NCBI GenBank assembly: GCA_017477245.1
Contig: JAFUWY010000020.1
Span: 62,001 to 126,000 of the forward strand
DNA: 64,000 nucleotides
DNA from: Bacteroidales bacterium
GTDB taxonomy: Bacteria; Bacteroidota; Bacteroidia; Bacteroidales; UBA932
Direction: 5' to 3'
The notes under the pieces were generated by a model. The model saw only the letters and a list, made by a program, of their open reading frames with translations, was not told the origin of the DNA and made no database searches. Positions 23,957 to 47,426 of this stretch are shown here, piece by piece. Position 1 is the first letter of the stretch; the number at the start of each line of letters is the position of its first letter. The translations under genes were made by a program, and so were the position numbers.

Positions 23957-25033
23957 ATGAAAACGACAAGAATCTCTCTCTCTTTCCTGCTGGCCATCCT
24001 GAGCCCGGTGGCCCTTTGCCTGTTGTCCGCCTGCCGGCACGACCCGGATGCCGCCGGGGCGGAATACACCTTGGACCTGACGGCCTCCGTGCCGGTGCGG
24101 TCCCTCAAAACGGATTTTGACCTGTCCCGCCTAGGCCGCTTCGAGGGCCCGTTCGAAGTCGACACCCTGTTCCGCAGTGCCTACTTCTGCCCGTTCGACG
24201 GACAGTCCCTGCTGATGTGCGCCGACAACCAGGTCTTCCGCGTGGGCGTACCGGACGGGAAGATCCTCGCCACCTACGGCCGCCCCGGCCGGGGCCCCAT
24301 GGAATATACCACAGTAGGTACCATGGACCGGATGCAGGGGGAGGTGTTCATTACGGACCATCGTGTCGGAAAAGAACTTGTCTTCGATCTGGAAGGACGG
24401 CCCCTGCGGTCGCTGGAGCTCGAAAAACTCACCCTGCAGAATCCGGTCGCGCCGGGAAAGTTCTTCCGGGGATATCCGAACGGGCACAAGAAGGGCTGCC
24501 TGTATGAGATCGTGGATGAAGAAGGGACCGTGTACAGAACCTCCCGGATTCCGCCGGTCGAGGCGAAGAACCCGATTGTCCAGCTGAACGGATGCCTCAA
24601 GATGGAAGGCAGGAATGTCATCCAGCCCCAGCTGAACTACGACTACTATACTGTCACGGAGACAGAGGAATCGCACTGGATCCATGTGCATACCGGTCAG
24701 TACGCGCAGCCGTTGGAGGTCCTATGGGACCTGGAACTCAAGCGATTGGAGGGGGACAAGTATATCAGCCGGGAGGACTTCCGCGTCATCGTGTCGGGCG
24801 GCCTGGCGTTCGTCCGCTATTTCATGGGTGGACTCCATGAGGTCATCTATGATCTGAAGACCGGCAAGATCCTGTTCAATATCAAGATCACGAGCGAGGA
24901 AGATCCGATCCTGGGCCTGCCGGTGGAGCACGGGGGGAAGACCTGGTACGTCTGGCCGGTCTATTCGGATGAGCATTTCCTGATCTGCTCGGATCTCTAC
25001 GACGAGCATTTCTGGCTATTTACCAAGGAATGA
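23957..25033 (+). CDS. Six-bladed beta-propeller lipoprotein (BF3164-like), paralogue A
   Basis: A 358-residue outer-envelope lipoprotein: lipobox LLSAC (C26), then a propeller with the family motif GRPGRGPMEY at 108-117. This G-R-x-G-R-G-P-x-E-Y block marks eleven of the twelve paralogues in the window. Other repeats read as blade strands (FRVGVPDGKILATYG, HEVIYDLKTGKILFN). Function of the family is unknown. ATG 23957 is chosen because it gives a clean signal peptide (MKTTRISLSFLLAIL); an upstream in-frame start adds an implausible extension. It follows the HTH regulator by 157 bases. Confidence 0.85.
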   Translation: MKTTRISLSFLLAILSPVALCLLSACRHDPDAAGAEYTLDLTASVPVRSLKTDFDLSRLGRFEGPFEVDTLFRSAYFCPFDGQSLLMCADNQVFRVGVPDGKILATYGRPGRGPMEYTTVGTMDRMQGEVFITDHRVGKELVFDLEGRPLRSLELEKLTLQNPVAPGKFFRGYPNGHKKGCLYEIVDEEGTVYRTSRIPPVEAKNPIVQLNGCLKMEGRNVIQPQLNYDYYTVTETEESHWIHVHTGQYAQPLEVLWDLELKRLEGDKYISREDFRVIVSGGLAFVRYFMGGLHEVIYDLKTGKILFNIKITSEEDPILGLPVEHGGKTWYVWPVYSDEHFLICSDLYDEHFWLFTKE

Positions 25034-25042
25034 CAGATAAAT

Positions 25043-25083
25043 AAACGAAGAACTTCGTTTGTCGGAAAGATTCATTATATTTG
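25043..25083 (+). promoter_or_regulatory. Promoter and dyad operator ahead of the BlaI-type repressor
   Basis: A perfect inverted repeat AAACGAAG-AA-CTTCGTTT spans 25043-25060, and TATATTTG, a -7 element, lies at 25076-25083. The dyad covers the expected -33 region, so a bound dimer would block RNA polymerase. Autoregulation by the BlaI-type protein is the natural guess. A second hairpin, CATCGGG/CCCGATG (25088-25108), lies in the leader. Confidence 0.6.
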
Positions 25084-25110
25084 TAAACATCGGGATAAAT
25101 GCCCGATGAA

Positions 25111-25488
25111 ATGAATATGAGAAGACTGACCAACAAGGAGCTGGAGATCATGACGCTCTTCTGGCACCATCCCGGCGGGCAGTTCGTCAAGGACCTCCAC
25201 GAATTCTACGACGAGCCCAAACCGCACATCAACACCATTTCCTCGCAGGTGCGCACCCTCGAGAAGGACGGCTTCCTGCGCCACAAGTCCTATGGCGGAA
25301 GCCACCAGTATTTCCCGGTGCTCAGCGAGAAGCAGTACCGCAAGGAGTTCCTGACGGGGTTTGTGCGGAACTTCTTCGGCAATTCCTACCGCGAGGTGGT
25401 GAGTTCGTTCGTACACGACGACAAGATCACGGTGGACGAACTGGAGGACCTCATCCGGCAGGTCCGGGAAGCCGAGGAGCAGAAATAA
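25111..25488 (+). CDS. BlaI/MecI-type transcriptional repressor
   Basis: About 125 residues. The winged-helix core of the BlaI family is clear: RRLTNKELEIMTLFWHHPGGQ, then the recognition part (INTISSQVRTLEKDGFLRHKSYGG) and a C-terminal dimerisation helix region ending ELEDLIRQVREAEEQK. Starts at 25099, 25111 and 25117 are possible; 25099 falls in the loop of a leader hairpin, and 25111 gives the usual family N-terminus. Classical BlaI pairs with a BlaR1 M56 sensor; none is adjacent. The gene heads the run propeller B, TolC-like protein, adaptor and two RND pumps, so it probably controls them. Confidence 0.88.
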   Translation: MNMRRLTNKELEIMTLFWHHPGGQFVKDLHEFYDEPKPHINTISSQVRTLEKDGFLRHKSYGGSHQYFPVLSEKQYRKEFLTGFVRNFFGNSYREVVSSFVHDDKITVDELEDLIRQVREAEEQK

Positions 25489-25545
25489 TCCCGCGGACAT
25501 GTAACTTTCCGGACAAAATCACGTCTGATAATTGAGGAACTGAAT

Positions 25546-29218: not shown

Positions 29219-32200
29219 ATGCTAGGCAAGCTCCTGGACCGTCCCGTCTCCGTCACGATGATCCTGCTGGTCTTCGTGGTGCTGGGGTTCGTGGGCATCG
29301 GCCGCCTGCCGGTGTCGCTGATCCCGGACGTGGACATCCCGTATGTGACCATCCAGGCGTCCGCGCCCGAGATGTCGGCGCGCGAGCTCAACGACGCGGT
29401 CGTCTCGCCGCTGCGCCAGCGCCTCGTGCAGATCGCCCACCTCAAGGACATCCGCTCCGAGGCGCGGGACGGCAGCGCCACGATGACCCTCTCCTTCGAG
29501 GAAGGGCAGGACATCGACTACTACTACATCGAGGTCAACGAGAACATCGACCGGGCGATGGGGTCCCTGCCCCGCATCGACCGTCCCAAGGTCTTCAAGG
29601 CCAGCGCGACGGACATCCCGGCGTTCTATATCAACATGACGCTCCGCGAGGAAGGAGGCAACTTCCTGAGGATGAGCGAATTCGCGGAAGACGTGATCGC
29701 CCGGCGCATCGAGCAGCTGCCCGAGGTGGCGATGGTGGACCTGAGCGGCACGGTGGACCGCGAGATCCTCGTGATCCCCGACCAGGAAGCGCTTGCGCGC
29801 CTGGGCCTGTCGATGAGCCAGTTCGAGCAGAGCGTCTCGGCCGCCAACGTCAACCTCTCCAACCTCACCATCCGCGACGGCGAATACCACTACAACGTCA
29901 AGTTCCACTCCTTCGCCACTTCGCGCGAGGACATCGGCAACGTCTACTTCAAGGTCGGGGAGCGCGTGCTGCAGGTCAAGGACGTGGCCTCGGTGGAGGA
30001 GCGCGAGGCGCCGCGCACCGGCCTGGCGCGCAGCGACGGGCGCGACGCGGTGACCCTCGCCGTGATCAAGCAGGGGGAGGCCCGCATGTCCGACCTCAAG
30101 AAGGGCATCGCGGAGCAGCTGGACCACTTCCGCCGGGATTATCCCCAGATGGAATTCTCGATGTCCCGCGACCAGACCGAGCTGCTGGACTACTCGATCC
30201 GCAACCTGCTGCTCAACATCCTGATGGCCATCCTGCTGGACATTGTGGTGATCTTCTTCTTCATGAAGGACTTCCGCTCGCCGGTGCTGGTGGCCCTGAC
30301 GATCCCGGTGTCGCTGATCATCTCTTTCTTCGTCTTCTTCGCGATCGGCCTGTCCATCAACATCATCTCCCTGTCCGGCCTGTTGCTGGGCGTGGGCATG
30401 ATGGTGGACAACACCATCGTGCTCACCGACAACATCACGGCGCGCTGGCAGCGGGGCGAAGCCCTGCGCAGCGCCGTCATCGAGGGCACCAAGGAGGTGC
30501 GCGGGGCGATGCTGAGCTCGGTCCTCACGACCTGCGCCGTGTTCATCCCGCTGATCTTCCTCAACGGCCTGGCGGGCCAGCTCTTCTACGACCAGGCCAT
30601 CGCCGTGACCACGGTCCTGCTGGTCTCCTACGCCGTGACGGTGATCGTGCTCCCGGTCTACTACTGGGCGCTGTACAAGAAACTTCCGGCCTTCCGGCCG
30701 AGCGCGTTCCTGGCGAAGATCCGCGTCGACGGGGCCATGCGCTGGTATGACCGCACGGTCTCCTGGTGCCTCTCGCACAAGTGGATCGGCTGGGCGCTGC
30801 CGGTCTTCTGCGCCGCGCTCACGGCCGTGTGCGTGTGGGGGATGCGCAAGGAGAAGCTCCCGCCGATCACCTACACCGACGCCATCCTCAAGATCGACTG
30901 GAACGAACACATCACCCTGGACGAGAACCGCGCGCGCATCATCGCGCTGGAGGACGCGGCTTCCGCCGCACAGACCACCGCCCTCGTCGGCGTCCAGCAG
31001 TTCGTGCTGAGCCACAGCGAGGACCAGGCGATGAGCGAGGCCTCGCTCTACGTGAGCTGCGGCAGCGCCCGCGAGCTCGCGGCGCTCCAGGAGCGCCTCT
31101 CGGCGCAGCTGCGGGAGCGCTACCCGGCGGCGATCCTGTCGTGGGGTTCCTCGGGGAACATTTTCGAGATGGTCTTCGCGGAGCGCGAACCCCAGCTGCT
31201 GGTGCGCCTGCGTCCGGACACCGACGAAGGGCTGACCGTCGGCGGGGTCCGGGAGGCGCTGGGCGCGCTGCGCACCGCGCTCCCGGGCGTGCAGGTCGAC
31301 GAGATCCCCCTCAAGCAGGACGTCCTGTACGTGTCCGACCCGGAGCGCATGGCGCTCTACGGGGTCGGATTCAACGACCTGGTCGCCGTGCTGCGCAACG
31401 CGCTCAACGGCAACCGCCTCTTCGAGATCGTCCAGGGCGCCCGGTCCGTGCCCGTCGTGCTGGGCACGGACGCCGAGGAGCTGTCCCGGATCCTGGCGCG
31501 CGCCACGGTCTCCGTGCCCGACGCGGAGCGGCCGGGCGGACGCACGGAGATCCCGGCCGCGGCGCTGATGCGCCAGACCTTCGAGCAGGATTTCAAGACG
31601 CTCGTCTCCGGCGACGACGGGGCCTATTATCCCGTGGAGCTGGACCTGCCGGCGCGGCAGGTGCCGGCCGCGATGACGGCCGTCCGCAGCGCCCTGCGCA
31701 GCGACGGCCGCTTCGACGCGGCCTTCACGGGCGCCTGGTTCTCCAACCGGGAGATGATCCGCCAGATGCTGCTGGTGCTGCTGGTGGCCCTGGCGCTGCT
31801 GTTCCTGATCCTCGCCTCGCAGTTCGAGTCGCTCGTGCAGCCGTTCATCATCCTGTCGGAAGTGGTGATCGACATCGCCGTGTCGCTGGCGTTCCTGTGG
31901 CTCGTGGGGGTGAGCATCAACATGATGTCGCTGATCGGCCTGATCGTGATCACGGGTATCGTGATCAACGACTCCATCCTCAAGATCGACACGATCAACC
32001 GCCTCGTCCGGGCCGGCTGGGAGGTCGAGGCGGCCGTCCATGAGGCCGGCCACCGCCGCCTCAAGGCCATCCTGATGACCTCGCTCACGACGATCCTTGC
32101 CGTGGCACCCTTCCTGTCGCGCGGCAACATGGGCGCCGACCTGCAGTTCCCGATGGCCCTCGTGGTCATCGTGGGCATGTCGGCCGGCACGCTCGTCAGC

Positions 32201-32254
32201 CTCTTCTACGTCCCGACGGTCTACGCCGCCATCTACCACAAGCGCACGCGCTGA
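29219..32254 (+). CDS. RND efflux transporter permease, first of a pair
   Basis: A 1011-residue inner-membrane pump. N-terminal helix ILLVFVVLGFVGIGRLPVSLIPDVDIP, two large periplasmic loops and twelve expected membrane helices are seen. The TM4 proton-relay region reads GVGMMVDNTIVLTDNI, with the aspartate-asparagine pair usual in this branch in place of AcrB's two aspartates. It overlaps the second pump gene by one base (TGATG), so the two are co-translated and may form a hetero-oligomer. The substrate cannot be read from sequence. Confidence 0.93.
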   Translation: MLGKLLDRPVSVTMILLVFVVLGFVGIGRLPVSLIPDVDIPYVTIQASAPEMSARELNDAVVSPLRQRLVQIAHLKDIRSEARDGSATMTLSFEEGQDIDYYYIEVNENIDRAMGSLPRIDRPKVFKASATDIPAFYINMTLREEGGNFLRMSEFAEDVIARRIEQLPEVAMVDLSGTVDREILVIPDQEALARLGLSMSQFEQSVSAANVNLSNLTIRDGEYHYNVKFHSFATSREDIGNVYFKVGERVLQVKDVASVEEREAPRTGLARSDGRDAVTLAVIKQGEARMSDLKKGIAEQLDHFRRDYPQMEFSMSRDQTELLDYSIRNLLLNILMAILLDIVVIFFFMKDFRSPVLVALTIPVSLIISFFVFFAIGLSINIISLSGLLLGVGMMVDNTIVLTDNITARWQRGEALRSAVIEGTKEVRGAMLSSVLTTCAVFIPLIFLNGLAGQLFYDQAIAVTTVLLVSYAVTVIVLPVYYWALYKKLPAFRPSAFLAKIRVDGAMRWYDRTVSWCLSHKWIGWALPVFCAALTAVCVWGMRKEKLPPITYTDAILKIDWNEHITLDENRARIIALEDAASAAQTTALVGVQQFVLSHSEDQAMSEASLYVSCGSARELAALQERLSAQLRERYPAAILSWGSSGNIFEMVFAEREPQLLVRLRPDTDEGLTVGGVREALGALRTALPGVQVDEIPLKQDVLYVSDPERMALYGVGFNDLVAVLRNALNGNRLFEIVQGARSVPVVLGTDAEELSRILARATVSVPDAERPGGRTEIPAAALMRQTFEQDFKTLVSGDDGAYYPVELDLPARQVPAAMTAVRSALRSDGRFDAAFTGAWFSNREMIRQMLLVLLVALALLFLILASQFESLVQPFIILSEVVIDIAVSLAFLWLVGVSINMMSLIGLIVITGIVINDSILKIDTINRLVRAGWEVEAAVHEAGHRRLKAILMTSLTTILAVAPFLSRGNMGADLQFPMALVVIVGMSAGTLVSLFYVPTVYAAIYHKRTR

Positions 32255-35583: not shown

Positions 35584-35593
35584 TATAACAAAA

Positions 35594-36730: not shown

Positions 36731-36796
36731 GCTCCGGTGCCTGCCGCCCGCCCCGAGAGGTACATGCGTCCCGTATGGACCGCCACTGGATGATAG

Positions 36797-36870
36797 CTGA
36801 TAATCAGGAGGTTACAAATTAACCTTCGGCAAAATAACCGATAGTTAAAATGTAAATTATTGATAATCAA
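36797..36870 (+). repeat. 74-bp TTGATAATCA element, copy 2
   Basis: CTGATAATCAG at 36797 and TTGATAATCAA at 36860, 63 bases apart as in every copy. The inner stem is weaker here (AACCTTCGG with CCGATAGTT). Flanking GATAGCT occurs just before and just after the element. Confidence 0.9.
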
Positions 36871-36881
36871 CGATAGCTAGA

Positions 36882-37991
36882 ATGAGAAACAAGGGACTAA
36901 TTTTGCAGACTAGCTGCCTGGCCCAGCTGGCCCTGGCCCTGGCGCTGCTGCCCGGCTGCCGCCGGGGCGACGCGGACGGGTTCGTGACCAAGGGTCCCGA
37001 CGGGGCGGTCACGCTCGCCGTCGGCGCGACGGCCGACCTGACGGAGCCGGTGACGGAGTTCCGGCTGGAGGATTATTACGATCCTGTCGGCGAAATCCTT
37101 CCTGACGATGAGGACCCCCGGACGTTCATGACCTCCATGGAGTTCTTCCATGCCGACGACGAGACCGTCCTGGTGCAATCCCGGGACCGAGTTGTGCGCC
37201 TGTCGCTGAAGGACGGTTCGTTCATCTGCGAGTATGGACGCAAGGGGCGCGGCCCCGGGGAGTATACCCAGCCGCTGCTGTGCTTTGTCCAGGACGGAGA
37301 GGTCTATGTCAACGACATCATGAGCCGGTGCCACGTCTATGCGCTCGAAGACGGGCGCCTGCTGCGGGAGTTCCCGCTCTTCGAGAAGAACAGCCAGTTC
37401 AGCATCTATGCCCCGCTGGACAAGGACCACGGGATCGTGTGTTATTCTTCGCTGTCCGGCAAAGACCACCTGTATGACGTGGTCGACGGGACCCGGCAGG
37501 TGGTCCGCGAGAGCGAACTGCCCCTGGAACCCCACCAAAGCGGCCAGGGAGCGGTCCGTGTTGGGTTCGCCCGTCGGATGGACGGAAAGCTGTACGTTCC
37601 GTACGAAGAACCGGACCTGGTCCTGTATCAGGTCTCCGCTGGGAAAGAAACGCCCGGGTTCCGGATGGACAAGGGGTCATACACGCCTTATTCCTCCACC
37701 GGCGACCACTGGCTGATTGAAGACGAATGGATGTCTTTCGGCCCGTTCTTTTACGTGACCCTCCGGCGCAAGGGTGGCCCTTCCGCCATCGCCGTCTATG
37801 ACCTCAAGCGCCGGGCGCTGGCGCTGTACAAGGCCGCCGTCGATGCGGAATCTTACCGCACGTACGGCCTTCCCTACACCCGCGACGGGCAGACCCTCTA
37901 TCTCATCCCGGATTTCGGCGACCGGGAGGTGCTGGTCTGCCATGACCTCGCTGCGCCGGACAACCATTACTGCTTCCGCCTGAAGAAGTAG
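36882..37991 (+). CDS. Propeller lipoprotein, paralogue D (subgroup I)
   Basis: A 369-residue lipoprotein with lipobox LLPGC (C26) and motif GRKGRGPGEY at 119-128. Residues 31-68 (ADGFVTKGPDGAVTLAVGAT and what follows) are almost the same as in paralogues F and H, and the identity extends to the DNA. The C-terminus DNHYCFRLKK is shared in form with F, G and H. The middle of the protein is much less conserved, so the gene looks mosaic. Confidence 0.86.
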   Translation: MRNKGLILQTSCLAQLALALALLPGCRRGDADGFVTKGPDGAVTLAVGATADLTEPVTEFRLEDYYDPVGEILPDDEDPRTFMTSMEFFHADDETVLVQSRDRVVRLSLKDGSFICEYGRKGRGPGEYTQPLLCFVQDGEVYVNDIMSRCHVYALEDGRLLREFPLFEKNSQFSIYAPLDKDHGIVCYSSLSGKDHLYDVVDGTRQVVRESELPLEPHQSGQGAVRVGFARRMDGKLYVPYEEPDLVLYQVSAGKETPGFRMDKGSYTPYSSTGDHWLIEDEWMSFGPFFYVTLRRKGGPSAIAVYDLKRRALALYKAAVDAESYRTYGLPYTRDGQTLYLIPDFGDREVLVCHDLAAPDNHYCFRLKK

Positions 37992-38086: not shown

Positions 38087-39171
38087 TGCGTGTTGGTTTT
38101 GTGAAATCTTTCGGCATCCTCGCCGTGGCGCTGCTCCTGGCAGCCTGCGCCCCGAAGGAGGGGGAATTCGCCGAGCCGCGTTTCCGCAAGGTCGAGCATC
38201 GGGATTTCACCATCCTGGGCGAGGAGCTGATGCTCTCGGTCGTGGGCGGCGAGGCCGCGTGGCGGGACCACCTGATCCTGCTGTCGGACGACATGGCCAC
38301 CAGAAACAACATCCACATCTACAGCAAACGCACGGGAGCCTGGGAACTGAGTGCGCTTCCGGTCGGACGGGCAGCCGGGGAGATCACGCTTGCCACGGAC
38401 ATCCAGGTGATGGGGGATACCTTGTATGTGTTCGACAACAATCCGCCCCGCCTGAAAAAGTATCTGCTGCCGGCGCTTCTGGCCCGGGAACCGATGTCGG
38501 AAGTCTTTCTGGGAGAAATCCCGATGAGCGATCGGAGCATGCATTGGGCCGCCGTCGCCCCGGACCGGATGGTCGTGGTGTCCACCCTGTCTCCGGTGGA
38601 CGGACCGGACCATGCGCCGCGGATCCTGTGGACCGGGCCGGACGGTCCGGTCGCCACGTATGATGCCTATCCGTACGAGGACAGAAAGCTCATCTGGAAC
38701 CAGTATTCCACGGCCTACCCATATTTCGCCCTGTCTCCGGACGGCAGCAAACTTGTCCTGTCGACCTCCTGGGGCAGTACCGTGGAGCTGTTCCGCCTCT
38801 CGGACGGGGAGATTGTCCGGGAGCACTGCCTGTATTGGGTCGATCCCGAATTCGTCCAGGGCAAGCCCGCAGCAACGTCCCGCGTAGGTACGTCCCGGAT
38901 CCTGGCAACGGACAGCGGATTCATTACGGCCTTTTATAGCAGGGAAAAGGATTTTGATTCCGGGAGGTACGCTTGCGACCGCATTGCTTTCTTTGACTGG
39001 GAAGGCCGGGGCCTCCGCTGTATCCAGCTCAGCGGATACAGCGCCACCCCCATCAGCTACGACGAGCAGGAGGGCACGCTCCTTGCGCTGCTCTGGGATG
39101 GGGATGGCACGATGTGCTTCGGTAAATTGGCTGTCAAAACGAAGGCTGATAATCAGAAGGTTACGAATTAA
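38086..39171 (+). CDS. Divergent propeller-like lipoprotein, paralogue E
   Basis: A 361-residue lipoprotein with lipobox LLAAC (C21). It is the only member lacking the GRGPxEY motif; the matching position reads VGRAAGEITLATD. Blade-like strands remain (YVFDNNPPRLKKYLLP, LVLSTSWGSTVELFRLSDGE). It may be a distant TolB-like propeller. The start ATG 38086 is formed at the edge of element copy 3, and the last eight residues (ADNQKVTN) plus stop are encoded by element copy 4. Confidence 0.78.
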   Translation: MRVGFVKSFGILAVALLLAACAPKEGEFAEPRFRKVEHRDFTILGEELMLSVVGGEAAWRDHLILLSDDMATRNNIHIYSKRTGAWELSALPVGRAAGEITLATDIQVMGDTLYVFDNNPPRLKKYLLPALLAREPMSEVFLGEIPMSDRSMHWAAVAPDRMVVVSTLSPVDGPDHAPRILWTGPDGPVATYDAYPYEDRKLIWNQYSTAYPYFALSPDGSKLVLSTSWGSTVELFRLSDGEIVREHCLYWVDPEFVQGKPAATSRVGTSRILATDSGFITAFYSREKDFDSGRYACDRIAFFDWEGRGLRCIQLSGYSATPISYDEQEGTLLALLWDGDGTMCFGKLAVKTKADNQKVTN

Positions 39172-39219
39172 CCTTCGGAAGAATCCCCGAAAGTTAAATC
39201 ATAAATCACTGATAATCAA
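39146..39219 (+). repeat. 74-bp TTGATAATCA element, copy 4
   Basis: CTGATAATCAG at 39146 and CTGATAATCAA at 39209. It overlaps the end of paralogue E (supplying its TAA stop) and its last base begins the ATG of paralogue F. It therefore forms the entire junction between two genes. Confidence 0.9.
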
Positions 39220-40313
39220 TGAGGATAAAGACAGGTTCAGTTCTCGTCGTAATCATCTCACTCTGCTGCCTGCTGCCCGGCTGCCGCCGGGGCGGCGCGG
39301 ACGGGTTCGTGACCAGGGGCCCCGACGGGGTGGTCACGCTCGCCGTCGGGGCGACGGCCGACCTTCAGGAGCCGGTCTGGGATTTCCGGTTGGAGGCGTA
39401 TTACGAACCGATTGGGGAGATCCTGCCGTCTGACGATCCGCGGACGTTCATGACCTCTATGATTTTTGCGTATTACGATTCGGAGTCGGTGCTGGCTTTT
39501 TCTCCCGACGGTCCGGGCCGGGTGATCCGGATTTCGCTCAAGGACGGATCATTCCTGGGTGAATTCGGTCGTTCGGGACGCGGGCCGGGAGAGTATGTGA
39601 CTCCGCTCTTTGTGTTCGCAAAAGACGGTGAGGTCTGTGTGAATGACATGCGGAGCATCTGCCATGTCTACTCAGCGGCAGACGGATCCTGGCTCCGGGA
39701 CATGCCCTTGGAAGAAGAAACCGTCCTGTTCAGCAATTATACCCCGCTGGGAGACGGCCTCGGCATTGTCTGCCATTCCTCCATGTCTGGAAATCCCCGG
39801 TTGTTCGATATCGTGGACGCTTCCGGACGGATTGTCCGTGAGGGCAAGCTTTCGGGCGATGGGCAGAGAACTTCTCTCGAAGAGGGGATTGCGGTGCGCT
39901 ACATCCGGCAGACGGGAGATGGTTATGGCTTGTTAACCAGCGACACAGGCGGGATGTACCGTATTACAGCAGAAGGAGCGTCGCCTTGGCTTAGCTTCGA
40001 TCCGGGGCATTATTCCCTGACGGGGAAGGACCGGATCGTGGTGTCGCAAATCTTCGAAAGCGGACGGTTTGTTTTTCTTTCCATCCAGGTCTTGGACAAC
40101 TATCGTCAGGCCGTGTATGATGTGCAGTCGGGCCGTCTGGTCTTTTGCTCCGCGGTCGACTTGTCGGAAGGGGATGTGGTTGTGCCGGGTTTCCCTTATT
40201 CGCGGGGAGGGGAGAGCGTGACGCTGGCCCCGTATCTGGCTTACGGCGGTCTGCTGATCTGCCGGGATGTCCTCGCGGAGGATCATTTCTACTGCTTCCG
40301 CAGGAAAGAATAA
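39219..40313 (+). CDS. Propeller lipoprotein, paralogue F (subgroup I)
   Basis: A 364-residue lipoprotein with lipobox LLPGC (C22) and motif GRSGRGPGEY at 117-126. The 5' end of the gene, about 39270-39370, matches D and H at DNA level (GCGGACGGGTTCGTGACC onward), while the rest is lower in G+C and diverged. The C-terminus DHFYCFRRKE is the subgroup I signature. Confidence 0.86.
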   Translation: MRIKTGSVLVVIISLCCLLPGCRRGGADGFVTRGPDGVVTLAVGATADLQEPVWDFRLEAYYEPIGEILPSDDPRTFMTSMIFAYYDSESVLAFSPDGPGRVIRISLKDGSFLGEFGRSGRGPGEYVTPLFVFAKDGEVCVNDMRSICHVYSAADGSWLRDMPLEEETVLFSNYTPLGDGLGIVCHSSMSGNPRLFDIVDASGRIVREGKLSGDGQRTSLEEGIAVRYIRQTGDGYGLLTSDTGGMYRITAEGASPWLSFDPGHYSLTGKDRIVVSQIFESGRFVFLSIQVLDNYRQAVYDVQSGRLVFCSAVDLSEGDVVVPGFPYSRGGESVTLAPYLAYGGLLICRDVLAEDHFYCFRRKE

Positions 40314-40377: not shown

Positions 40378-41475
40378 ATGAACGCACATAATTATTTGAC
40401 TGTTCTTGTCTTGGCCCTGGCGCTGCTGCCCGGCTGCCGCCGGGACGGCGCGGACGCGCTGGTCAGCCGGGAGTCCGGCGGGCTGGTCCGGGTCGAGATC
40501 GAGGCGATGGCGGAATGGACGGAACCGGTGGCGGAATTCGATCTGGCCAGGAGGTTCCAGCCTGTCGGGGAATTCCGGCTTGGAGACACGCGGGAGAATT
40601 ATATCGACGGCCCGAAGGAGTTTAAGTACTATGATGCCGGGTCGGTCCTGGTCAGCGGCCTGGACCGCGTCCTGCGTGTTTCGGTCATCGACGGGACTCC
40701 CTTGCAGGAGTATGGCCGGAAAGGCCGGGGTCCCGGAGAGTTCGTGCAAGTGGAATCGTGTTTCGGCCAGGCTGACCGGGTCTATGTCACGGATACAGGC
40801 AGCCAGGTACATGTCTATGAAGCGGACGGGACGTCCGTGAAGGATTTCCTGCTGCTTGTTCCCGCCGTCCAATTCTGCGAACTGGCCCCGCTCGGCGGAG
40901 AGGCTTATCTGCTGAATTACTCTTCGCTCTCCGGGAAAGACCGTTATTTCGATGTCGTAGATGCCGGAATGAAGCTTGTCCGGCAAGGTTCCCTGCATCC
41001 GGACGATTCGGACCTGAAAAAGGGGGCAATCCGTCCGGGCGCCTCTCTGCGTTTTGACGACCGGGATTGCGTGATGTCGGGCGATACGCTTTACCGCGTG
41101 ACGCCGCAGAAGGACCGCCCGTATTGGTATTTCGCGAAGAAGAAAACGAAGGGAATCCACTTTGAGAAGATGTCCAATTGGTTTTTTGTCCAGGCGAGCA
41201 CGGCCAGCCATGATTTCCGGATGGTGGTGGATGTCAGGACAGGTACCCCGGTATTCTATGCCCCGTTGAAGAAAACGTCCATGACAGTCGCCACGCAGCG
41301 CGGACCCGTCACGGTTCCCTCGACAGATCCGGAAGACCGGGCCCGTTTCGGAATCCCCTATGTTCGCGATGGGGAAGAAAGGCACATTTGGCCGGTCCTG
41401 GCGGACCGGGACCTGCTGATCTGCAATGACTGCCAGGAGACGGATTACTACTACTGCTTCCACCTGAAGAAATAG
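40378..41475 (+). CDS. Propeller lipoprotein, paralogue G (subgroup I)
   Basis: A 365-residue lipoprotein with lipobox LLPGC (C20) and motif GRKGRGPGEF at 113-122. The signal and lipobox DNA (TTGGCCCTGGCGCTGCTGCC and on) is the same as in D and I, but the shared ADGFVTKGPDG stretch is replaced by ADALVSRESGG. The C-terminus DYYYCFHLKK fits subgroup I. Confidence 0.86.
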   Translation: MNAHNYLTVLVLALALLPGCRRDGADALVSRESGGLVRVEIEAMAEWTEPVAEFDLARRFQPVGEFRLGDTRENYIDGPKEFKYYDAGSVLVSGLDRVLRVSVIDGTPLQEYGRKGRGPGEFVQVESCFGQADRVYVTDTGSQVHVYEADGTSVKDFLLLVPAVQFCELAPLGGEAYLLNYSSLSGKDRYFDVVDAGMKLVRQGSLHPDDSDLKKGAIRPGASLRFDDRDCVMSGDTLYRVTPQKDRPYWYFAKKKTKGIHFEKMSNWFFVQASTASHDFRMVVDVRTGTPVFYAPLKKTSMTVATQRGPVTVPSTDPEDRARFGIPYVRDGEERHIWPVLADRDLLICNDCQETDYYYCFHLKK

Positions 41476-41585: not shown

Positions 41586-42686
41586 ATGAGAACGACTCAA
41601 ACCAACAACCGGCAGACAGGCCGACCCGGCGCCGTGCTGCTGTCGCTGCTCGCCGCGGCCCTGCTTGCCGCGTGCGGCGCGGACGGGTTCGTGACCAAGG
41701 GCCCCGACGGGGCGGTCACGCTCGCCGTCGGGGCGACGGCCGACCTGACGGAGCCGGTGACGGATTTCCGGCTGGAGGACTACTACGAACCGGTTGGGGA
41801 GATCCTCCCCTCCGATGATCCGCGGACCTTCATGCGTGGAATGAATTTCGCGTACTATGATGCGAATACGGTCTTGGCTTATTCCGGAGATCGCGTGATT
41901 CGGTTATCGCTCGCTGACGGTTCTTTTCAAGGGGAGTACGGCCACAAAGGAAGAGGTCCCGGAGAATATACGATGGTACTTTCTGCCTTTGTCAGGGACG
42001 GCAGGGTATACGTAAATGACATCATGAGTACCTATCACGTATATGAGGGCGTCGACGGTCATCATCTCCAAGACGTCCCATTATTTGACAAGGCACAGCA
42101 GTTCTGCGCCCTCTATCCGCTGGAAGGAGATTATTCGATGATCCTGTATGCCTCCACGGCTGGGAAAAAACAGGTTTTCGATATTATTGACGGTTCCGGG
42201 AACCTGGTCCGTGAGAGCTCTCTGCAAGACGACAACGAAGAGATTGCCCAACGAGGAGGAATCCGGATAGGGTACAGCATCCCGTTGGGCGAGGGCTGGG
42301 GTGTTCCGTCAGACCGCGACAGGACGCTTTATCGTATCTTGCCAGAGCGGGATATTCCATGGGTCAGATTCGACTATGGTCGTTACTCTCCGACCGATTC
42401 TCCTCTGATGGTTTTGGAACGATTCAGTGTGTCCGGACCCTTTTTCTTGGCGAGCTTATATGGCGAATCAAGTTCTTTTCGTGCCGTCTATGATCTGCAG
42501 CGCTGCCGTTTGCTTTTTGTTACAGAAAATTTGAGCGATGATACGAGAGTGGAGCGTGCCGGCATTCCGTATGAACTTGACGGGCAGACACTTTTCCTCT
42601 GGCCCGAATTTGCCGCCCGCGACCTGTTGATCTGCCGGAATGTCCACACTGCGGACAACTACTACTGCTTCCGATTGAAGAAATAG
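41586..42686 (+). CDS. Propeller lipoprotein, paralogue H (subgroup I)
   Basis: A 366-residue lipoprotein with lipobox LLAAC (C30) and motif GHKGRGPGEY at 119-128. From GCGGACGGG at 41679 to about 41830 the DNA is nearly that of paralogue D and very G+C-rich; after about 41840 it becomes clearly poorer in G+C and diverged. Its lipobox segment differs from D, F, G and I. The C-terminus is DNYYCFRLKK. The stop is 2 bases before the next start. Confidence 0.86.
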   Translation: MRTTQTNNRQTGRPGAVLLSLLAAALLAACGADGFVTKGPDGAVTLAVGATADLTEPVTDFRLEDYYEPVGEILPSDDPRTFMRGMNFAYYDANTVLAYSGDRVIRLSLADGSFQGEYGHKGRGPGEYTMVLSAFVRDGRVYVNDIMSTYHVYEGVDGHHLQDVPLFDKAQQFCALYPLEGDYSMILYASTAGKKQVFDIIDGSGNLVRESSLQDDNEEIAQRGGIRIGYSIPLGEGWGVPSDRDRTLYRILPERDIPWVRFDYGRYSPTDSPLMVLERFSVSGPFFLASLYGESSSFRAVYDLQRCRLLFVTENLSDDTRVERAGIPYELDGQTLFLWPEFAARDLLICRNVHTADNYYCFRLKK

Positions 42687-42688: not shown

Positions 42689-43774
42689 ATGAAAACGATT
42701 GGAAATCTTGTTTGGTTCGTTCTGGCCCTGGCGCTGCTGCCCGGCTGCCGCCGGGGCGGCGCGGACATCCTGGCGCTGGACTTGGCGGAGCTTGCCGATG
42801 CTGAGTACCAGACGGCGTGGACCCTGGACCAGGCTATCCGGGCGGTAGATCTTTTCGAACTGGCTCCGGACCGGCCGCTGGGTTATTCCCCGATGTCAGG
42901 CTACGACGGCAGGAACCTGTTGCTTCGTCTGCAGGATACCCTTGCCATGGTCGGACCGGACGGACGCGTCGTTTCTTCTTTTTCCCGGAAGGGGCGGGGG
43001 CCGCAGGAGTATATATCCGCGAATCCGTTCCTGGACCCTGCAGGACGCATCCTGGTGCTGGATACCGGCCGGAAGCGCGCGCTGACCTATCTGCAGGACG
43101 GAACGTTCGTGTCGGTGCAGGAAGATGTGTATGCGTATGATATCCATCTCTTTCCGGACGGAAGCCGGGCGGTGATGGCGCTTCCGCACGAACAGAAGGG
43201 AGCGAATCCGGCCTTTTCGGTCCTGGGCCCGGACGGGTCTGTCCGCTACGCGGCCCCGGCCCATCCGGAGGACCATACGCTGTTTTCCTATCATGCCGGG
43301 CATTTCCAAGCCGGGACGGCCGGCTCTTGCTATTTCAGGCGGGACGACCTGGATACGCTCTACCGCCTCCGGCCGGACCGGATGGAGGCGGTCGCTGCTT
43401 TCCTCAAGCCGCCCAAGCCGACGGAGACCCCGGTGCGCCAGCATGCGGACGGGTCGGTTTTCATAGGCAAAAGCGTCGGCCGTTTCGAGGACCGGAACAG
43501 CTTCGTGCTGGCCGACCTGTTGTTCTATGCTTTTATGGATCGGGAGAAGTCCGGGGACCATTACCTGGTGTACGATCTGCAGACCGGATCCTTGTTATAC
43601 CATGGCGCCGAGCCGCCGACCTTGGATGTCAACGACTGGGAGATCCACCTGTGGCCGAACTTCGTACACGGACAGGATGCCTGGTGCCAGCTGGGGCGTT
43701 TTGACACCTCGAAGATCCTGCCCAGCTTCTCCCGCGACAGCAACGAAGCCTTTGTGCATGTGCGTGCCCGGTGA
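42689..43774 (+). CDS. Propeller lipoprotein, paralogue I
   Basis: A 361-residue lipoprotein with lipobox LLPGC (C20) and motif RKGRGPQEY at 100-108. Its first 26 residues (VLALALLPGCRRGGAD) are encoded by DNA the same as in D, F and G, but all the rest belongs to a different branch (DILALDLAELADAEYQT). It starts 2 bases after paralogue H, so the two are translated from one message. Confidence 0.85.
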   Translation: MKTIGNLVWFVLALALLPGCRRGGADILALDLAELADAEYQTAWTLDQAIRAVDLFELAPDRPLGYSPMSGYDGRNLLLRLQDTLAMVGPDGRVVSSFSRKGRGPQEYISANPFLDPAGRILVLDTGRKRALTYLQDGTFVSVQEDVYAYDIHLFPDGSRAVMALPHEQKGANPAFSVLGPDGSVRYAAPAHPEDHTLFSYHAGHFQAGTAGSCYFRRDDLDTLYRLRPDRMEAVAAFLKPPKPTETPVRQHADGSVFIGKSVGRFEDRNSFVLADLLFYAFMDREKSGDHYLVYDLQTGSLLYHGAEPPTLDVNDWEIHLWPNFVHGQDAWCQLGRFDTSKILPSFSRDSNEAFVHVRAR

Positions 43775-43800
43775 AAGGTGACGACGTTGTGCTGCAGGTG

Positions 43801-43874
43801 TTGATAATCAGATAATTACAAATTAACCTTCGGCAAAATCCCCGAGAGTTAAATTATAAAGTATTGATAATCAA
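43801..43874 (+). repeat. 74-bp TTGATAATCA element, copy 5
   Basis: TTGATAATCAG at 43801 and TTGATAATCAA at 43864. The upstream 25 bases (ACGACGTTGTGCTGCAGG) resemble those before copy 6, so similarity between copies 5 and 6 extends beyond the element. The hairpin is AACCTTCGG/CCGAGAGTT. Confidence 0.9.
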
Positions 43875-43881
43875 TCATCGA

Positions 43882-44985
43882 ATGAAAAGAGTTTGCTGTT
43901 TGTTCGCGGCGTCGCTGCTGCTCGCCGCATGCGGCCCGAAGGGCGCGCCGGGCGTGGTGCCGGTGCCGGAGAAGATTTCGGCGGAGGCGCTCGAGCCGCT
44001 GGTGCGCTCGATCGACCTGGTCCCGCTGGAGACGCACGGGGATGATTTCCTCGGAGAGCAGACAGTATTATATTTAGCAGATGGTAAGTATCTTCTCAAG
44101 GACCCGGGCAACCGGAACCTGTTCTTGTATGGCCCGGACGGGAAGTTCCTGAATCGCATCGGCCGGGTCGGCCGGGGTCCGGGGGAATACCATAGCCTGA
44201 TGAATGCGCTGTATGCCAACGGACGAGTCCATGTGTATCAGGGTCGTTCCGACATGCTGGTCTATCGTCCGGACGGTACGCTCGAGAAGGCGGTGACGCT
44301 CCCGTCCGAAGGGGGAAATGCCTTTTATCCGCTGAAGGACGGCTGGCTGAACTATGTCGGATTCGCGTATACCGGCGATGACATGATCCAGTGGGTCCGG
44401 GAGGGGCAGGAACCCGTATCGCTGCTCCGGAAGCCGGGGCAGGCCCCCGTCGCACTGATGCAGGAGCGGCCCTTCTCGGAGCACGCGGGACGCATTTTCA
44501 TGCCCATCGCCTGGAGCGATGACGTCTATGCTTTCGCGGACGGGAAGGCGGAAATGTGGCTGGACCTGGACTTCGGCCGCTACACGATCGGAGACGAGTT
44601 CTTTGGCGGGAACCTGGATGCGGCGATGCGGATCCTGCAGACCCGCTACGGCACGCTGACCGCTTATTGGGAGAATGACCGGATGCGGGTTGTCGAAGCC
44701 TCGCGCGTGGAGAAGAAGGAAGGCAAGCCGTCTCCCGAACGGGAATGCCTCTACGGCCTCTTCCTTCATGGGAAATGGAATTGGGTGAGCGCCGGCGGCC
44801 CCAATGAGGCTCTGTTTGCCTTCAGCGTCGCCGGCATCGACGGCGACGCGCTGGTGTGCCTGCTGGATCCGCTGCTGCTCAAGGAGATGGACCCGGCCCT
44901 CAAGGCGAAAATCTCCAACCCGCAGGTGATCGATACCTTCGACGAATACAGCAACTACGTCGTTGCGAAACTGCATCTGAAGTAA
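43882..44985 (+). CDS. Propeller lipoprotein, paralogue J (subgroup II)
   Basis: A 367-residue lipoprotein with lipobox LLAAC (C17) and motif GRVGRGPGEY at 94-103. Residues 12-58 (LLLAACGPKGAPGVV... LVPLETHGDDFLG) and the last about 45 (LLDPLLLKEMDPALKAKISN ... VVAKLHLK) are nearly those of paralogue L; the middle differs more. ATG 43882 is chosen; the in-frame TTG at 43864 lies in the repeat element. Confidence 0.87.
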   Translation: MKRVCCLFAASLLLAACGPKGAPGVVPVPEKISAEALEPLVRSIDLVPLETHGDDFLGEQTVLYLADGKYLLKDPGNRNLFLYGPDGKFLNRIGRVGRGPGEYHSLMNALYANGRVHVYQGRSDMLVYRPDGTLEKAVTLPSEGGNAFYPLKDGWLNYVGFAYTGDDMIQWVREGQEPVSLLRKPGQAPVALMQERPFSEHAGRIFMPIAWSDDVYAFADGKAEMWLDLDFGRYTIGDEFFGGNLDAAMRILQTRYGTLTAYWENDRMRVVEASRVEKKEGKPSPERECLYGLFLHGKWNWVSAGGPNEALFAFSVAGIDGDALVCLLDPLLLKEMDPALKAKISNPQVIDTFDEYSNYVVAKLHLK

Positions 44986-45010
44986 GGACGACGGCGTTGT
45001 GTTGCGGGCG

Positions 45011-45084
45011 TTGATAATCAGGAAGTTACAAATTAACTTTCGGAAGAACCGCCGAAGGTTAAAATATAAGTGATTGATAATCAG
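45011..45084 (+). repeat. 74-bp TTGATAATCA element, copy 6
   Basis: TTGATAATCAG at 45011 and TTGATAATCAG at 45074. The hairpin is AACTTTCGG/CCGAAGGTT. The following TATAACAAAAATGAAAAC is shared with the sequence after copy 1, so copies 1 and 6 share downstream flanks up to the start codon. Confidence 0.9.
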
Positions 45085-45094
45085 TATAACAAAA

Positions 45095-46174
45095 ATGAAA
45101 ACAACAATGAAAACAACTCTTGCAAGCCTTGTTCTTCCCTGGATGCTGGTGTCTGCTGCCTTGGTCTCCTGCAGCCGCCCGGCGGCGGAACCGTCGGTGA
45201 TCCGCATGGCGGAGCTGAAGGAGGCGCCGATGCCCCAGGCGGGGCTGCCGTGCTTCTCGTCCGTGGAGCAGTTCCTGCTGGACCGGGAGCCGAACGACGC
45301 GTCCATAGCGCTCCCGGAGAAGGTTGTCGTGGCTGGGGAGCGGATATATATCCTGGGATATAGCGGGGACATGCGTCTAGCGTATGTCTCTGAATATGAC
45401 CACGAAGGCCGCGCGGTCCGGATGATGGGCCGCCGGGGTCGGGGACCGGGCGAATACGCCCGGGCGCAGGACTTCGTCGTGGGCCCGGAGGGAGACTGCC
45501 GGATCCTGCTGGTGGACCGGGGCGAGGCGATGCTGTACCATTACGGCCCGGACGGGACGTTCCTCGGAAAGGCTTCTCCGGCAGGGCCGGATCCGGTGTC
45601 CCCGTATTATCTGGCCGCCCTTCCCTCCGGCGAACTGCTCGTGGGGACGACCCTCTGGGACGAATCCGCGTGGAAGGACTACCGGGTGGTGGTCTGCGAC
45701 ACCTTGCTGCAGGCCCGCAGCGGGATGATTCCGGATCCTCACAACCTGGATCCGAATTTCGCGTTCTCGAACGTGGGGATCTGCGACACCGGGGAGGACT
45801 TCCAATACATCGTGCCGATGGAGGATTGCGTACACCGCTTCGACCGGGCGGGGAATGACATCGGCTCGGTGCGCATCGATTTCGGGCCCGCCGCGCTCAC
45901 GGATGACATCCGCATCGACGTGGAGCCCCATCTCGATGAGCTGAAGGAGAAGAGTTTCCTGTTCAACGCCGCCTACGTGGACGAGGCCTGGCTGTTCGGT
46001 TCGCTGCAGGAGAAAGGCAAGCATCGGAGCTTCGCCGTGGACCGCGCCGCCGGGGTGCGGTATGCGACTGACGATCTCTACGGGTGGTTCCAAGGCGTCT
46101 GGGACGGCCGCGCCGTCTGGCTCAAGGACACCGAGGACGGCTGGCAACTGACCCTTTGCACGCTGCGGCGCTAA
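45095..46174 (+). CDS. Propeller lipoprotein, paralogue K
   Basis: A 359-residue lipoprotein with lipobox LVSC (C26) and motif GRRGRGPGEY at 112-121. Apart from the motif it is not close to the two main subgroups. A second ATG at 45107 is possible. The 5' leader is copied from the same source as that of paralogue C (AACAAAAATGAAAACA), although the mature proteins differ. Confidence 0.85.
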   Translation: MKTTMKTTLASLVLPWMLVSAALVSCSRPAAEPSVIRMAELKEAPMPQAGLPCFSSVEQFLLDREPNDASIALPEKVVVAGERIYILGYSGDMRLAYVSEYDHEGRAVRMMGRRGRGPGEYARAQDFVVGPEGDCRILLVDRGEAMLYHYGPDGTFLGKASPAGPDPVSPYYLAALPSGELLVGTTLWDESAWKDYRVVVCDTLLQARSGMIPDPHNLDPNFAFSNVGICDTGEDFQYIVPMEDCVHRFDRAGNDIGSVRIDFGPAALTDDIRIDVEPHLDELKEKSFLFNAAYVDEAWLFGSLQEKGKHRSFAVDRAAGVRYATDDLYGWFQGVWDGRAVWLKDTEDGWQLTLCTLRR

Positions 46175-46233
46175 GCGCCTGGCGCGTCGCGGGCTGCCGT
46201 TTTTGTAAGTGCTTGATCGACAAAGAAATAGTA

Positions 46234-46265
46234 TTTTGCTCCGGGGAAATAGTCCCGGAGCAAAA
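46234..46265 (+). promoter_or_regulatory. Hairpin/dyad upstream of paralogue L
   Basis: A perfect 12-bp stem TTTTGCTCCGGG / CCCGGAGCAAAA with an 8-base loop. A weaker copy lies before paralogue H (41532-41561). TATTTTG at 46232 overlaps the left arm and resembles a -7 element, so the dyad could be an operator or the first structure of the leader. ATG 46293 follows 27 bases later. Confidence 0.55.
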
Positions 46266-46292
46266 ATAGAAACAGTTGATAGTAAGTCAGAT

Positions 46293-47426
46293 ATGAAAAC
46301 AGCACAGATTCAATTCCGTTGTTTGGCGGGACTGGCCGGCGCCGCGGCGTCGCTGCTGCTCGCCGCGTGCGGCCCGAAGGGCGCGCCGGGCGTGGTGACG
46401 GTGCCGGAGAATATCTCGCAGGATGCGCTCGAGCCGCTGGTGCGCTCGATCGACCTGGTCCCGCTGGAGACGCACGGGGATGATTTCCTCGGGCAGGGGA
46501 CCTTCCTGATTCCTGCGGACGAGAAGTATCTGCTCGTGGACGAGGGGAACAGGAAACAGCACCTGTACGGCCCGGACGGGAAGTTCCTGAACCGGATCGG
46601 GCGGGAAGGCCGGGGCCCGGAGGAGTACCACATGCTCTTCAACGTGCTGTACACGGGCGGACGGGTTTATGTCTATCAGAATGGATCGGACCTGCTGGTC
46701 TATCGCCAGGACGGCTCGTTCGAGAAGAAACTGAACTTGCCCGCCGAAGGTTGCAACGCTTTCTTCCCGCTGGAGGACGGTTATCTGGCCTATATCGGCT
46801 ATGTCGGTCCGGGTGATGACATGATCCAGTGGATCCCGGAAGGGCAGGAACCCGTGTCGCTGGTCCCGAAGCGGGGGCCGTTACCCTTCCCAATGATGCA
46901 GCAGCGGCCTTTCTCGGAGTATGGGGGACGCATCTTCATGCCGGATGCCATGGGAGAGCAGGTCTATGCCTTCGCTGATGGGAAGGCGGAGACCTGGCTG
47001 AACCTGGATTTCGGCCGCTTCACGGCTGGGGAAGAGCTCTTCAGCGGCGACGTGGATGCGGCTTTCCGGATCCTGGAGACCCGCCATGCGAATGTCGGCG
47101 CCTATTGGGAGAACGAGCGGATGCGGGTCGTCGAGGCACAGCGGTCGGAGAAGAAAGACGACAGTTCGCCTTTCCCCGACCGGGAGATTATCTACGGGCT
47201 CTTCCTCCACGGGAAATGGAACTGGGTGAACACCGGCGACATCGGTGCCACGCCGTTCGCCCACAGCGTCTCCGGCCTTGACGGCGACGCGCTGGTCTGC
47301 CTGCTGGACCCGCTGCTGCTCAAGGAGATGGACCCGGCCCTCCGGGCGAAAATCTCCAATCCGCAGGTCCTCGACACGTTGGATGAGAACAGCAATTTCG
47401 TCGTCGCGAAACTGCATCTGAAATAA
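46293..47426 (+). CDS. Propeller lipoprotein, paralogue L (subgroup II)
   Basis: A 377-residue lipoprotein with lipobox LLAAC (C26) and motif GREGRGPEEY at 103-112. It is the closest relative of J, with nearly identical segments at both ends (GPKGAPGVV..., LLDPLLLKEMDPAL). ATG 46293 gives a normal signal peptide; earlier in-frame starts are in the repeated leader. It is the last of the array and is followed by a strong terminator. Confidence 0.87.
   Translation: MKTAQIQFRCLAGLAGAAASLLLAACGPKGAPGVVTVPENISQDALEPLVRSIDLVPLETHGDDFLGQGTFLIPADEKYLLVDEGNRKQHLYGPDGKFLNRIGREGRGPEEYHMLFNVLYTGGRVYVYQNGSDLLVYRQDGSFEKKLNLPAEGCNAFFPLEDGYLAYIGYVGPGDDMIQWIPEGQEPVSLVPKRGPLPFPMMQQRPFSEYGGRIFMPDAMGEQVYAFADGKAETWLNLDFGRFTAGEELFSGDVDAAFRILETRHANVGAYWENERMRVVEAQRSEKKDDSSPFPDREIIYGLFLHGKWNWVNTGDIGATPFAHSVSGLDGDALVCLLDPLLLKEMDPALRAKISNPQVLDTLDENSNFVVAKLHLK

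What the first reader, a model, noticed from the sequence alone, without database searches (positions are those of the whole stretch)
23957..47426. Twelve propeller lipoproteins arrayed around a two-pump efflux operon
Twelve BF3164-like lipoprotein genes lie on one strand, ten of them consecutive after the TolC-like, adaptor and two RND genes, and paralogue B is inside the pump operon behind a BlaI-type repressor. Eleven carry GRGPxE(Y/F). The density suggests a variable set of surface or periplasmic ligand-binding proteins working with one export system. In Bacteroides, similar propeller genes have been noted near small secreted peptides; none is evident here. Function is inference.
Basis: partly seen in the sequence, partly recalled or inferred. 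Interest (0 to 1): 0.75.

Follow-up and report, generated by a model that had tools for sequence, protein, structure and literature searches.

The report
Propeller lipoprotein array with dedicated pump
A bacterium related to ruminant-gut species carries twelve lipoproteins around one export pump; in its relatives such lipoproteins often sit beside tiny, very variable secreted peptides, which suggests the row is a collection of partner or protection proteins for such peptides.

Summary
Observation confirmed: twelve lipoprotein genes (12/12 lipobox, 11/12 GRGPxE[YF]) lie on one strand around BlaI, TolC, adaptor and two RND genes. Eleven are mutually homologous; the twelfth (38086) belongs to a second, TolB_like propeller class.

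The pump link holds in relatives. In 121 genomes of the genus, 16 of 18 with the second RND gene have such propellers, against 5 of 103 without it. Of 36 pump loci with both 10-kb flanks, 34 hold propellers.

In relatives these loci hold NVEALA-type peptides (leader alike within a genome, hypervariable Cys-rich core), mostly abutting a propeller gene. Across genomes peptide cores, far more than leaders, track the adjacent propeller. Confident peptide hits occur in 12 of 18 pump-positive and 0 of 103 pump-negative genomes; a dedicated S26 signal peptidase in 10 and 0. The window's genome has three peptide-propeller pairs on another contig. None of the window's 12 propellers has one: an orphan array.

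Best reading (0.45): an inducible protection bank of peptide-binding propellers plus efflux pump. Rivals: peptide export/maturation, peptide sensing, peptide-independent efflux. No description of this system was found in the paper searches made.

The parts
15203..16459 (-). putative lipoprotein X, partner of the BlaR1-like gene
   Evidence: 60% identical to the gene that in relative G008 lies between BlaR1-like and BlaI in the pump locus; no Pfam match
16463..17719 (-). BlaR1-like M56 sensor
   Evidence: PF05569 41.6 bits, cut-off 31; 59% identical to the M56 gene of the G008 pump locus
22588..23799 (+). membrane protein with a weak LuxR-type C-terminal helix-turn-helix, directly upstream of the first propeller; role unknown
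   Evidence: GerE 16.5 bits, below cut-off 23.5
23957..25033 (+). propeller lipoprotein 1
   Evidence: GRGPMEY; leave-one-out E=2.3e-33
25043..25060 (.). perfect inverted repeat AAACGAAG-AA-CTTCGTTT in front of blaI; candidate operator
   Evidence: no other site in the window with up to 3 mismatches; function inferred
25099..25488 (+). BlaI/MecI-type repressor
   Evidence: PF03965 83.7 bits
25546..26643 (+). propeller lipoprotein 2, head of the pump genes
   Evidence: PF17170 75.3 bits
26653..28134 (+). TolC-like outer-membrane channel
   Evidence: PF02321
28136..29212 (+). periplasmic adaptor (HlyD/AcrA type)
   Evidence: PF13437
29219..32254 (+). RND permease 1
   Evidence: PF00873 506.8 bits
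32254..35568 (+). RND permease 2, the marker used for the pump in relatives
   Evidence: PF00873 362.3 bits
35594..36730 (+). propeller lipoprotein 3, first after the pump
   Evidence: PF17170 28.1 bits
36882..37991 (+). propeller lipoprotein 4; 87% identical to a copy on contig C35
38086..39171 (+). propeller lipoprotein 5, TolB_like class, lacks GRGPxE[YF]
39219..40313 (+). propeller lipoprotein 6
40378..41475 (+). propeller lipoprotein 7
41586..42686 (+). propeller lipoprotein 8
42689..43774 (+). propeller lipoprotein 9
43864..44985 (+). propeller lipoprotein 10
   Evidence: PF17170 60.5 bits
45074..46174 (+). propeller lipoprotein 11
   Evidence: PF17170 41.5 bits
46293..47426 (+). propeller lipoprotein 12
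   Evidence: PF17170 63.8 bits

Best explanation
The locus is the pump-and-propeller part of a Bacteroidales system built on Cys-rich secreted peptides of the NVEALA type. SHOWN by sequence: the pump and the propellers go together; in relatives propellers are often encoded directly after such a peptide gene, and peptide cores and adjacent propellers vary together; the window's twelve have no peptide of their own; the genome has three peptide-propeller pairs, F13 (Wzy/TPR) and an S26 signal peptidase elsewhere. INFERRED: each propeller lipoprotein sits on the periplasmic side of the outer membrane and binds one or a few peptide cores; the tripartite RND pump throws the bound or free peptide out of the periplasm; a BlaR1/BlaI pair switches the pump genes on under attack; the array without peptides is a bank of protection proteins against peptides made by neighbours. 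In principle it works like lantibiotic immunity (a binding lipoprotein plus a pump), multiplied into an orphan array.
For: Pump and propeller co-occurrence 16/18 vs 5/103, Fisher 8e-14. 34 of 36 fully flanked pump loci hold propellers, 92 in about 720 kb of flank; 30 of 43 have one within 2 kb upstream of the TolC gene. Control in 8 genomes: 1 of 21 other RND genes has an A1 hit within 10 kb, against 9 of 9 RND2 loci (counted by hand). Peptides: confident hits (E<=1e-5) in 12 of 18 RND2+ and 0 of 103 RND2- genomes (Fisher). 69 of 77 peptide ORFs have a propeller within 1.5 kb downstream on the same strand, most abutting (duplicates included). Core-propeller tracking: 13 cross-genome comparisons with similar cores have mean propeller similarity 0.36 against 0.042 background; 0 of 1000 within-genome shuffles reach it. 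Orphan state: 0 of 12. Pump with propellers but no peptide found in the stretches examined of G008, G081, G083, G126, which also lack the S26-type and F13 genes. BlaR1-X-BlaI-propeller-pump contiguous in G008. Four RND systems are upregulated when a Bacteroidales strain meets the peptide toxin bacteroidetocin A (passage of PMC8546649).
Against: No toxicity of NVEALA peptides is known to me or was found; immunity is an analogy. Linked variation of neighbouring genes follows partly from physical linkage alone. RND2+ genomes without NVEALA hits are not all peptide-free: G016 and G058 have other Cys-rich small secreted peptides upstream of propellers. Peptide-freeness of G008, G081, G083, G126 was judged on fetched stretches, and genome-wide only with the NVEALA profile, whose candidates were scored to a cap (one weak G081 hit, E=0.0019, in a 289-aa frame). 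5 of 103 RND2- genomes have propellers; 2 of 36 fully flanked loci (L093, L096) have none. Propeller paralogues are under purifying selection (pN/pS 0.25-0.41 in the one close pair), with no sign of the diversifying selection an arms race might leave. The operator and co-expression are untested.
Confidence: 0.45

Rival explanations
1. Export and maturation: the RND pump secretes the cell's own peptides after the S26 peptidase cuts the leader; propellers are periplasmic escorts that hand each peptide to the pump.
For: S26-type (10 of 10 genomes), F13 (10 of 11) and confident NVEALA hits (12 of 12) lie in RND2+ genomes. In L039, L043, L057, L061 and L065 a peptide-propeller pair stands directly upstream of the TolC gene. 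NVEALA resembles an AxA signal-peptidase site (eye judgement).
Against: Pump and propellers persist where no peptide, S26-type or F13 gene was found (G008, G081, G083, G126). The window's propellers outnumber the genome's known peptides (12 here, 3 peptides). BlaR1/BlaI control fits response to stress better than secretion.
Confidence: 0.25
2. Sensing: the propellers are receptors for peptide signals and the array widens the range of signals read; the pump clears or releases the signal.
For: Conserved leader and hypervariable core resemble signal peptides as well as toxins. A putative membrane helix-turn-helix protein lies directly upstream of propeller 1.
Against: That regulator was not found at any other pump locus examined (no LUXR match outside the window). 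No kinase or transducer recurs in the family clustering.
Confidence: 0.13
3. Peptide-independent efflux: the propellers bind other ligands, such as small molecules or bile-like compounds, and feed a generic multidrug pump; peptide genes are passengers.
For: In distant loci (L098, L108, L111, L112) propellers flank the pump but the NVEALA profile finds no peptide.
Against: Peptide genes are beside propellers far above control: 67 of 255 propellers against 8 of 272 other genes. L088, L100, L107, L114 and L115 show other Cys-rich small secreted peptides in the same place.
Confidence: 0.12
4. No joint function: a tandem expansion of a common Bacteroidales lipoprotein family that happened beside a pump.
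For: The array contains local tandem copies and is highly diverged.
Against: The association recurs in many genomes and at 36-39% RND2 identity.
Confidence: 0.05

Closest known systems
NVEALA peptides (Pfam PF14055)
   Same: Relatives' peptides match it, some over the cut-off (4 of 121 genomes); same N-[VIL]-E-A-L core motif and Cys-rich tail
   Different: The window's own array has none; the three peptides on own contig C38 reach at best 20.9 bits, below the cut-off of 27. Pfam gives no function in the entry shown
DUF5128 / TolB_like 6-bladed propeller lipoproteins (PF17170, PF15869)
   Same: 5 of 12 over the DUF5128 cut-off; peptide-paired propellers of relatives fall in both families
   Different: 7 of 12 below any cut-off; organisation as an orphan array on an RND pump operon
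Lantibiotic immunity, LanI lipoprotein plus LanFEG pump (recalled)
   Same: Working principle proposed: binding lipoprotein plus efflux, beside peptide genes
   Different: Gram-negative, RND instead of ABC pump, propeller lipoproteins, array of twelve; function not shown
Acquired interbacterial defence arrays of orphan immunity genes in Bacteroidales (abstract starts only, e.g. PMC10470768, PMC12247911)
   Same: Consecutive orphan partner genes without the cognate effector
   Different: Those protect against type VI effectors; here the proposed targets are secreted peptides and a pump is included
Bacteroidetocins (passages of PMC6671954, PMC8546649)
   Same: Small, Cys-containing secreted peptides of Bacteroidetes
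   Different: They have a GG leader, an ABC transporter/peptidase and no immunity protein according to those passages; here the leader motif is NVEAL-type, an S26 peptidase and propellers accompany them
MdtABC-type tripartite RND pump with two permeases
   Same: TolC, adaptor and two RND genes; MdtB is the best PDB match of both permeases
   Different: About 1104-aa RND2 with its own lineage; propellers in the operon

Membership tests
NHL-type 6-bladed propeller lipoproteins | profile similarity to solved NHL propellers | tested here: met
   TRIM71 E=5.5e-26, 4raa E=3e-12, with a profile of all 12; individually 38086 is an outlier
NHL-type 6-bladed propeller lipoproteins | six blades in a model | not testable with these tools
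NHL-type 6-bladed propeller lipoproteins | lipobox | tested here: met
   12 of 12
PF17170 DUF5128 | score over Pfam's cut-off | tested here: inconclusive
   5 of 12 over 22.9 bits
NVEALA peptide-propeller system | peptide gene directly upstream of the propeller | tested here: not met
   0 of 12 in the window; 3 pairs on own contig C38. The window array is therefore filed as an orphan relative of the system, not as a full member
NVEALA peptide-propeller system | RND2-type pump | tested here: met
   confident NVEALA hits (E<=1e-5) in 12 genomes, all 12 RND2+
RND tripartite pump | OEP, adaptor and ACR_tran genes in order | tested here: met
BlaR1/BlaI regulation | Penicillinase_R repressor and M56 sensor | tested here: met
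   split in the window, contiguous in G008
BlaR1/BlaI regulation | BlaI binds an operator at the pump genes | not testable with these tools
   candidate dyad 25043-25060 only
Peptide immunity (LanI/LanFEG-like) | protects the cell from a peptide toxin | not testable with these tools
   needs an experiment
Bacteroidetocin | GG leader and ABC transporter/peptidase in the locus | not tested
   no formal scan; the leaders of the 58 peptides end in NVEAL-type motifs
Surface-exposed Bacteroidota lipoprotein | acidic export signal after the Cys | tested here: not met
   none of 12 by eye against the consensus given in passages of PMC5080379

The most novel reading that the evidence does not exclude
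A previously undescribed Bacteroidota system in which hypervariable disulfide-rich peptides are each matched by a dedicated beta-propeller lipoprotein that binds the peptide core, served by a dedicated two-permease RND pump, S26 peptidase and Wzy/TPR protein; orphan propeller arrays such as this one are inherited banks of protection (or recognition) against other strains' peptides.
Probability: 0.35. Interest if true: 0.85.

Novelty: new variant of a known kind. Interest (0 to 1): 0.7.

Why it matters
It would give a role to two large Bacteroidota families without an assigned function in the libraries used (DUF5128/TolB_like propellers and NVEALA peptides) and name a pump, a peptidase and a regulator that go with them. 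It makes a concrete question testable: does each propeller bind the peptide core beside it, and do orphan arrays protect against foreign peptides? If so, Bacteroidales have a peptide-versus-binding-lipoprotein competition system organised like the known orphan immunity arrays but with a different protein architecture and a pump.

Tried and rejected
First pattern search for GRGPxE was mis-written (missing the x codon) and its zero means nothing. I first took TIGR04149 for the NVEALA model from memory; papers (passages of PMC8939145 and PMC4573289) and the NCBIfam scan (no match for three peptides) show it is a different precursor family, and the idea was dropped. Positive selection on propellers: rejected for the one close pair; the divergent middle (aa 181-300) of 36882 against its C35 copy has raised synonymous as well as replacement change (pS 0.44 against 0.06-0.08 in the flanks, pN/pS about 0.4), which points to segment exchange. 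'Six pump-positive genomes without peptides' was weakened after one search found other Cys-rich peptides in G016 and G058; four remain, judged on fetched stretches. A sensing role through the LuxR-like gene was not pursued further, because no such gene recurred. Script failures: one search stopped on an empty sequence and was rewritten; one search failed on coordinates and was not repeated.

In one search, four of the 13 comparisons concern a single pair of propellers, because two peptides share one propeller in each of two genomes. Fisher tests treat genomes as independent, which relatives are not.
Full report
WHAT IS THERE. All twelve have a lipobox; 11 of 12 have GRGPxE[YF]. Leave-one-out profiles recover 11 of 12 at E<=5.5e-13; 38086 fails (E=0.47) and instead matches propellers of a second class, several of which are peptide-paired in relatives and match or resemble Pfam TolB_like. 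The family profile matches NHL propellers in the PDB. The locus lies between ordinary chromosomal genes: a glycosyl hydrolase family 2 gene upstream and a galactokinase-like gene downstream.

THE PUMP ASSOCIATION IS CONSERVED. The second RND gene (RND2) was used as marker. In a sample of 121 genomes of the same genus (unnamed; several are ruminant-gut Bacteroidales MAGs by matching contigs) RND2 occurs in 18 and A1-profile propellers in 21; 16 have both, 2 only RND2 (G055, G083, in both of which a broader profile still finds propellers near the pump), 5 only propellers (Fisher 8e-14). In 80 RND2 loci from genome contigs (best 80 of 109) 55 have a propeller in the stretch held; of 36 with both 10-kb flanks 34 do, with 92 propellers in about 720 kb, and in 30 of 43 with enough sequence a propeller lies within 2 kb upstream of the TolC gene on the same strand. 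These reach RND2 identities of 36-39% in records titled Prolixibacter, Sunxiuqinia, Draconibacterium, Cyclobacteriaceae and Aquimarina. Control: in 8 genomes, 1 of 21 other RND genes has an A1 hit within 10 kb (G000:C5), against 9 of 9 RND2 loci (hand count).

COPY NUMBER VARIES. Closest relatives: G081 has four propellers directly after RND2, G008 none after but three before. In the tree of 227 propellers the window's twelve fall into several lineages; all four G081 genes have window counterparts; 36882, 39219, 40378, 41586 and a copy on contig C35 form one family, and 25546, 43864, 46209 another. So the array is a mosaic of several lineages with local duplications.

PEPTIDES. In relatives, clustering of neighbours showed recurrent extra genes: an S26 signal peptidase (PF10502), a Wzy_C/TPR membrane protein F13 (PF04932), and F16, judged thioredoxin-like by eye from its CxxC (no Pfam match). 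Pfam NVEALA peptides (10 of 121 genomes at E<=0.01, 4 over cut-off) lie among the propellers. An own profile finds confident hits (E<=1e-5) in 12 of 121 genomes, all 12 RND2+; 8 further genomes have only weak hits (7 of them RND2-). The S26 type at E<=1e-50 is in 10 of 121, all RND2+; F13 in 11 of 121, 10 RND2+. The peptides have a hydrophobic leader ending in N-[VIL]-E-A-L-type motifs and a tail of median 45 residues with 8.6% Cys against 2.0% in the propellers (58 peptides). Leaders are alike within a locus (mean similarity 0.43 against 0.25 between), tails are not (0.12 against 0.10).

PAIRING. 69 of 77 peptide ORFs have a propeller within 1.5 kb downstream on the same strand, most overlapping or abutting (with duplicate loci). 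Among 58 unique pairs from 25 loci, cross-genome similarity of tails goes with similarity of the adjacent propellers (rank correlation 0.18, leaders 0.07); 13 comparisons with tail similarity above 0.35 have mean propeller similarity 0.36 against 0.042, never reached in 1000 within-genome shuffles (largest 0.20), and in 11 of 13 the propellers are mutual best cross-genome matches. Four of the 13 share one propeller pair. Linkage alone predicts part of this; what it does not predict is that leaders, in the same gene as the tails, hardly follow. A motif-free test (small ORF, hydrophobic start, at least two Cys) finds such a peptide upstream of 67 of 255 propellers and of 8 of 272 other genes; it also shows non-NVEALA peptides in G016, G058 and distant loci.

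THE WINDOW IS AN ORPHAN ARRAY. No peptide precedes any of its twelve propellers by profile, by eye on relaxed ORFs or by the motif-free test (0 of 12; against 33 of 102 in the other genus loci examined, p=0.013). The genome does make the system elsewhere: contig C38 carries three NVEALA-like peptides each followed by a propeller, with F16-, F13- and transglutaminase-like (eye judgement) neighbours; F13 and S26 genes also start contigs C7 and C29. Peptide presence changes at least five times on the RND2 tree of 20 rows, no more clustered than shuffled labels (G016 and G058 were counted there as without peptides).

REGULATION AND PLACE. In G008 the order is BlaR1-like, lipoprotein X, BlaI, propeller, TolC, adaptor, RND1, RND2 on one strand. 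The window keeps orthologues of BlaR1 (59% identical) and X (60%) 7-10 kb upstream on the other strand. A perfect 8+8 inverted repeat lies in front of blaI at 25043-25060 and nowhere else in the window. None of the twelve mature N-termini has an acidic export signal like those in PMC5080379 (passages), so the periplasmic side is likelier.

MECHANISM. The simplest reading that covers orphan array, pump, stress-type regulator and pump loci without peptides is protection: propellers bind peptide cores and the pump removes them. Export is the main rival, because producer genes and pump go together. Which one holds is not decided by sequence.

LITERATURE. 'NVEALA' occurs in no paper of the library. 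DUF5128, PF17170, DUF4934 and PF16288 occur in none; the PF14055 hits are in malaria papers, unrelated. Combined searches showed nothing on this system, but one search listed 20 of 93 and 8 of 16 papers, and subscription journals and most preprints are not held.

Noticed in passing
window 20660-21640: About 1 kb of tandem repeats (units of 40, 73 and 51/102 bases) inside a 1.9-kb gap without a predicted gene between the GH2 gene and 22588.
   Followed up: partly
window 35502-35615, 36789-36902, 39138-39251, 43793-43906, 45003-45116: A 114-base repeat (61-91% identity to the first copy) stands in the gaps of the array; its first copy runs into the 3' end of RND2 and so encodes the tail of that protein. 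A 19-base core has 7 matches in the window, none expected.
   Followed up: partly
window 36882-37991 and G000 C35:37393-38493 (L158): Two copies 87% identical with nearly unchanged ends but a diverged middle (aa 181-300, pS 0.44 against 0.06-0.08), as expected from segment exchange between paralogues.
   Followed up: yes
L058/L069 and L062/L070: In two MAGs RND2 is broken by contig ends at about the same residue (500-518); assembly repeat or real breakpoint unknown.
   Followed up: no
window 56277-57970: A gene like the BT3442 family appears in two overlapping frames, while relatives G058 and G113 have about 520-aa homologues near their propellers.
   Followed up: no
window 29219-35568: In the MdtB alignments both permeases keep the first Asp of the TM4 pair (second is Asn) and have no Lys at the TM10 position where MdtB has Lys; what this means for proton coupling is open.
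   Followed up: no
G116 C19 and C30: One genome with two RND2 pump loci, both with propellers and peptides.
   Followed up: partly
G000 C5:50089-53127 and C5:62271: Another RND gene of the own genome lies 9 kb from a propeller related to 42689.
   Followed up: no
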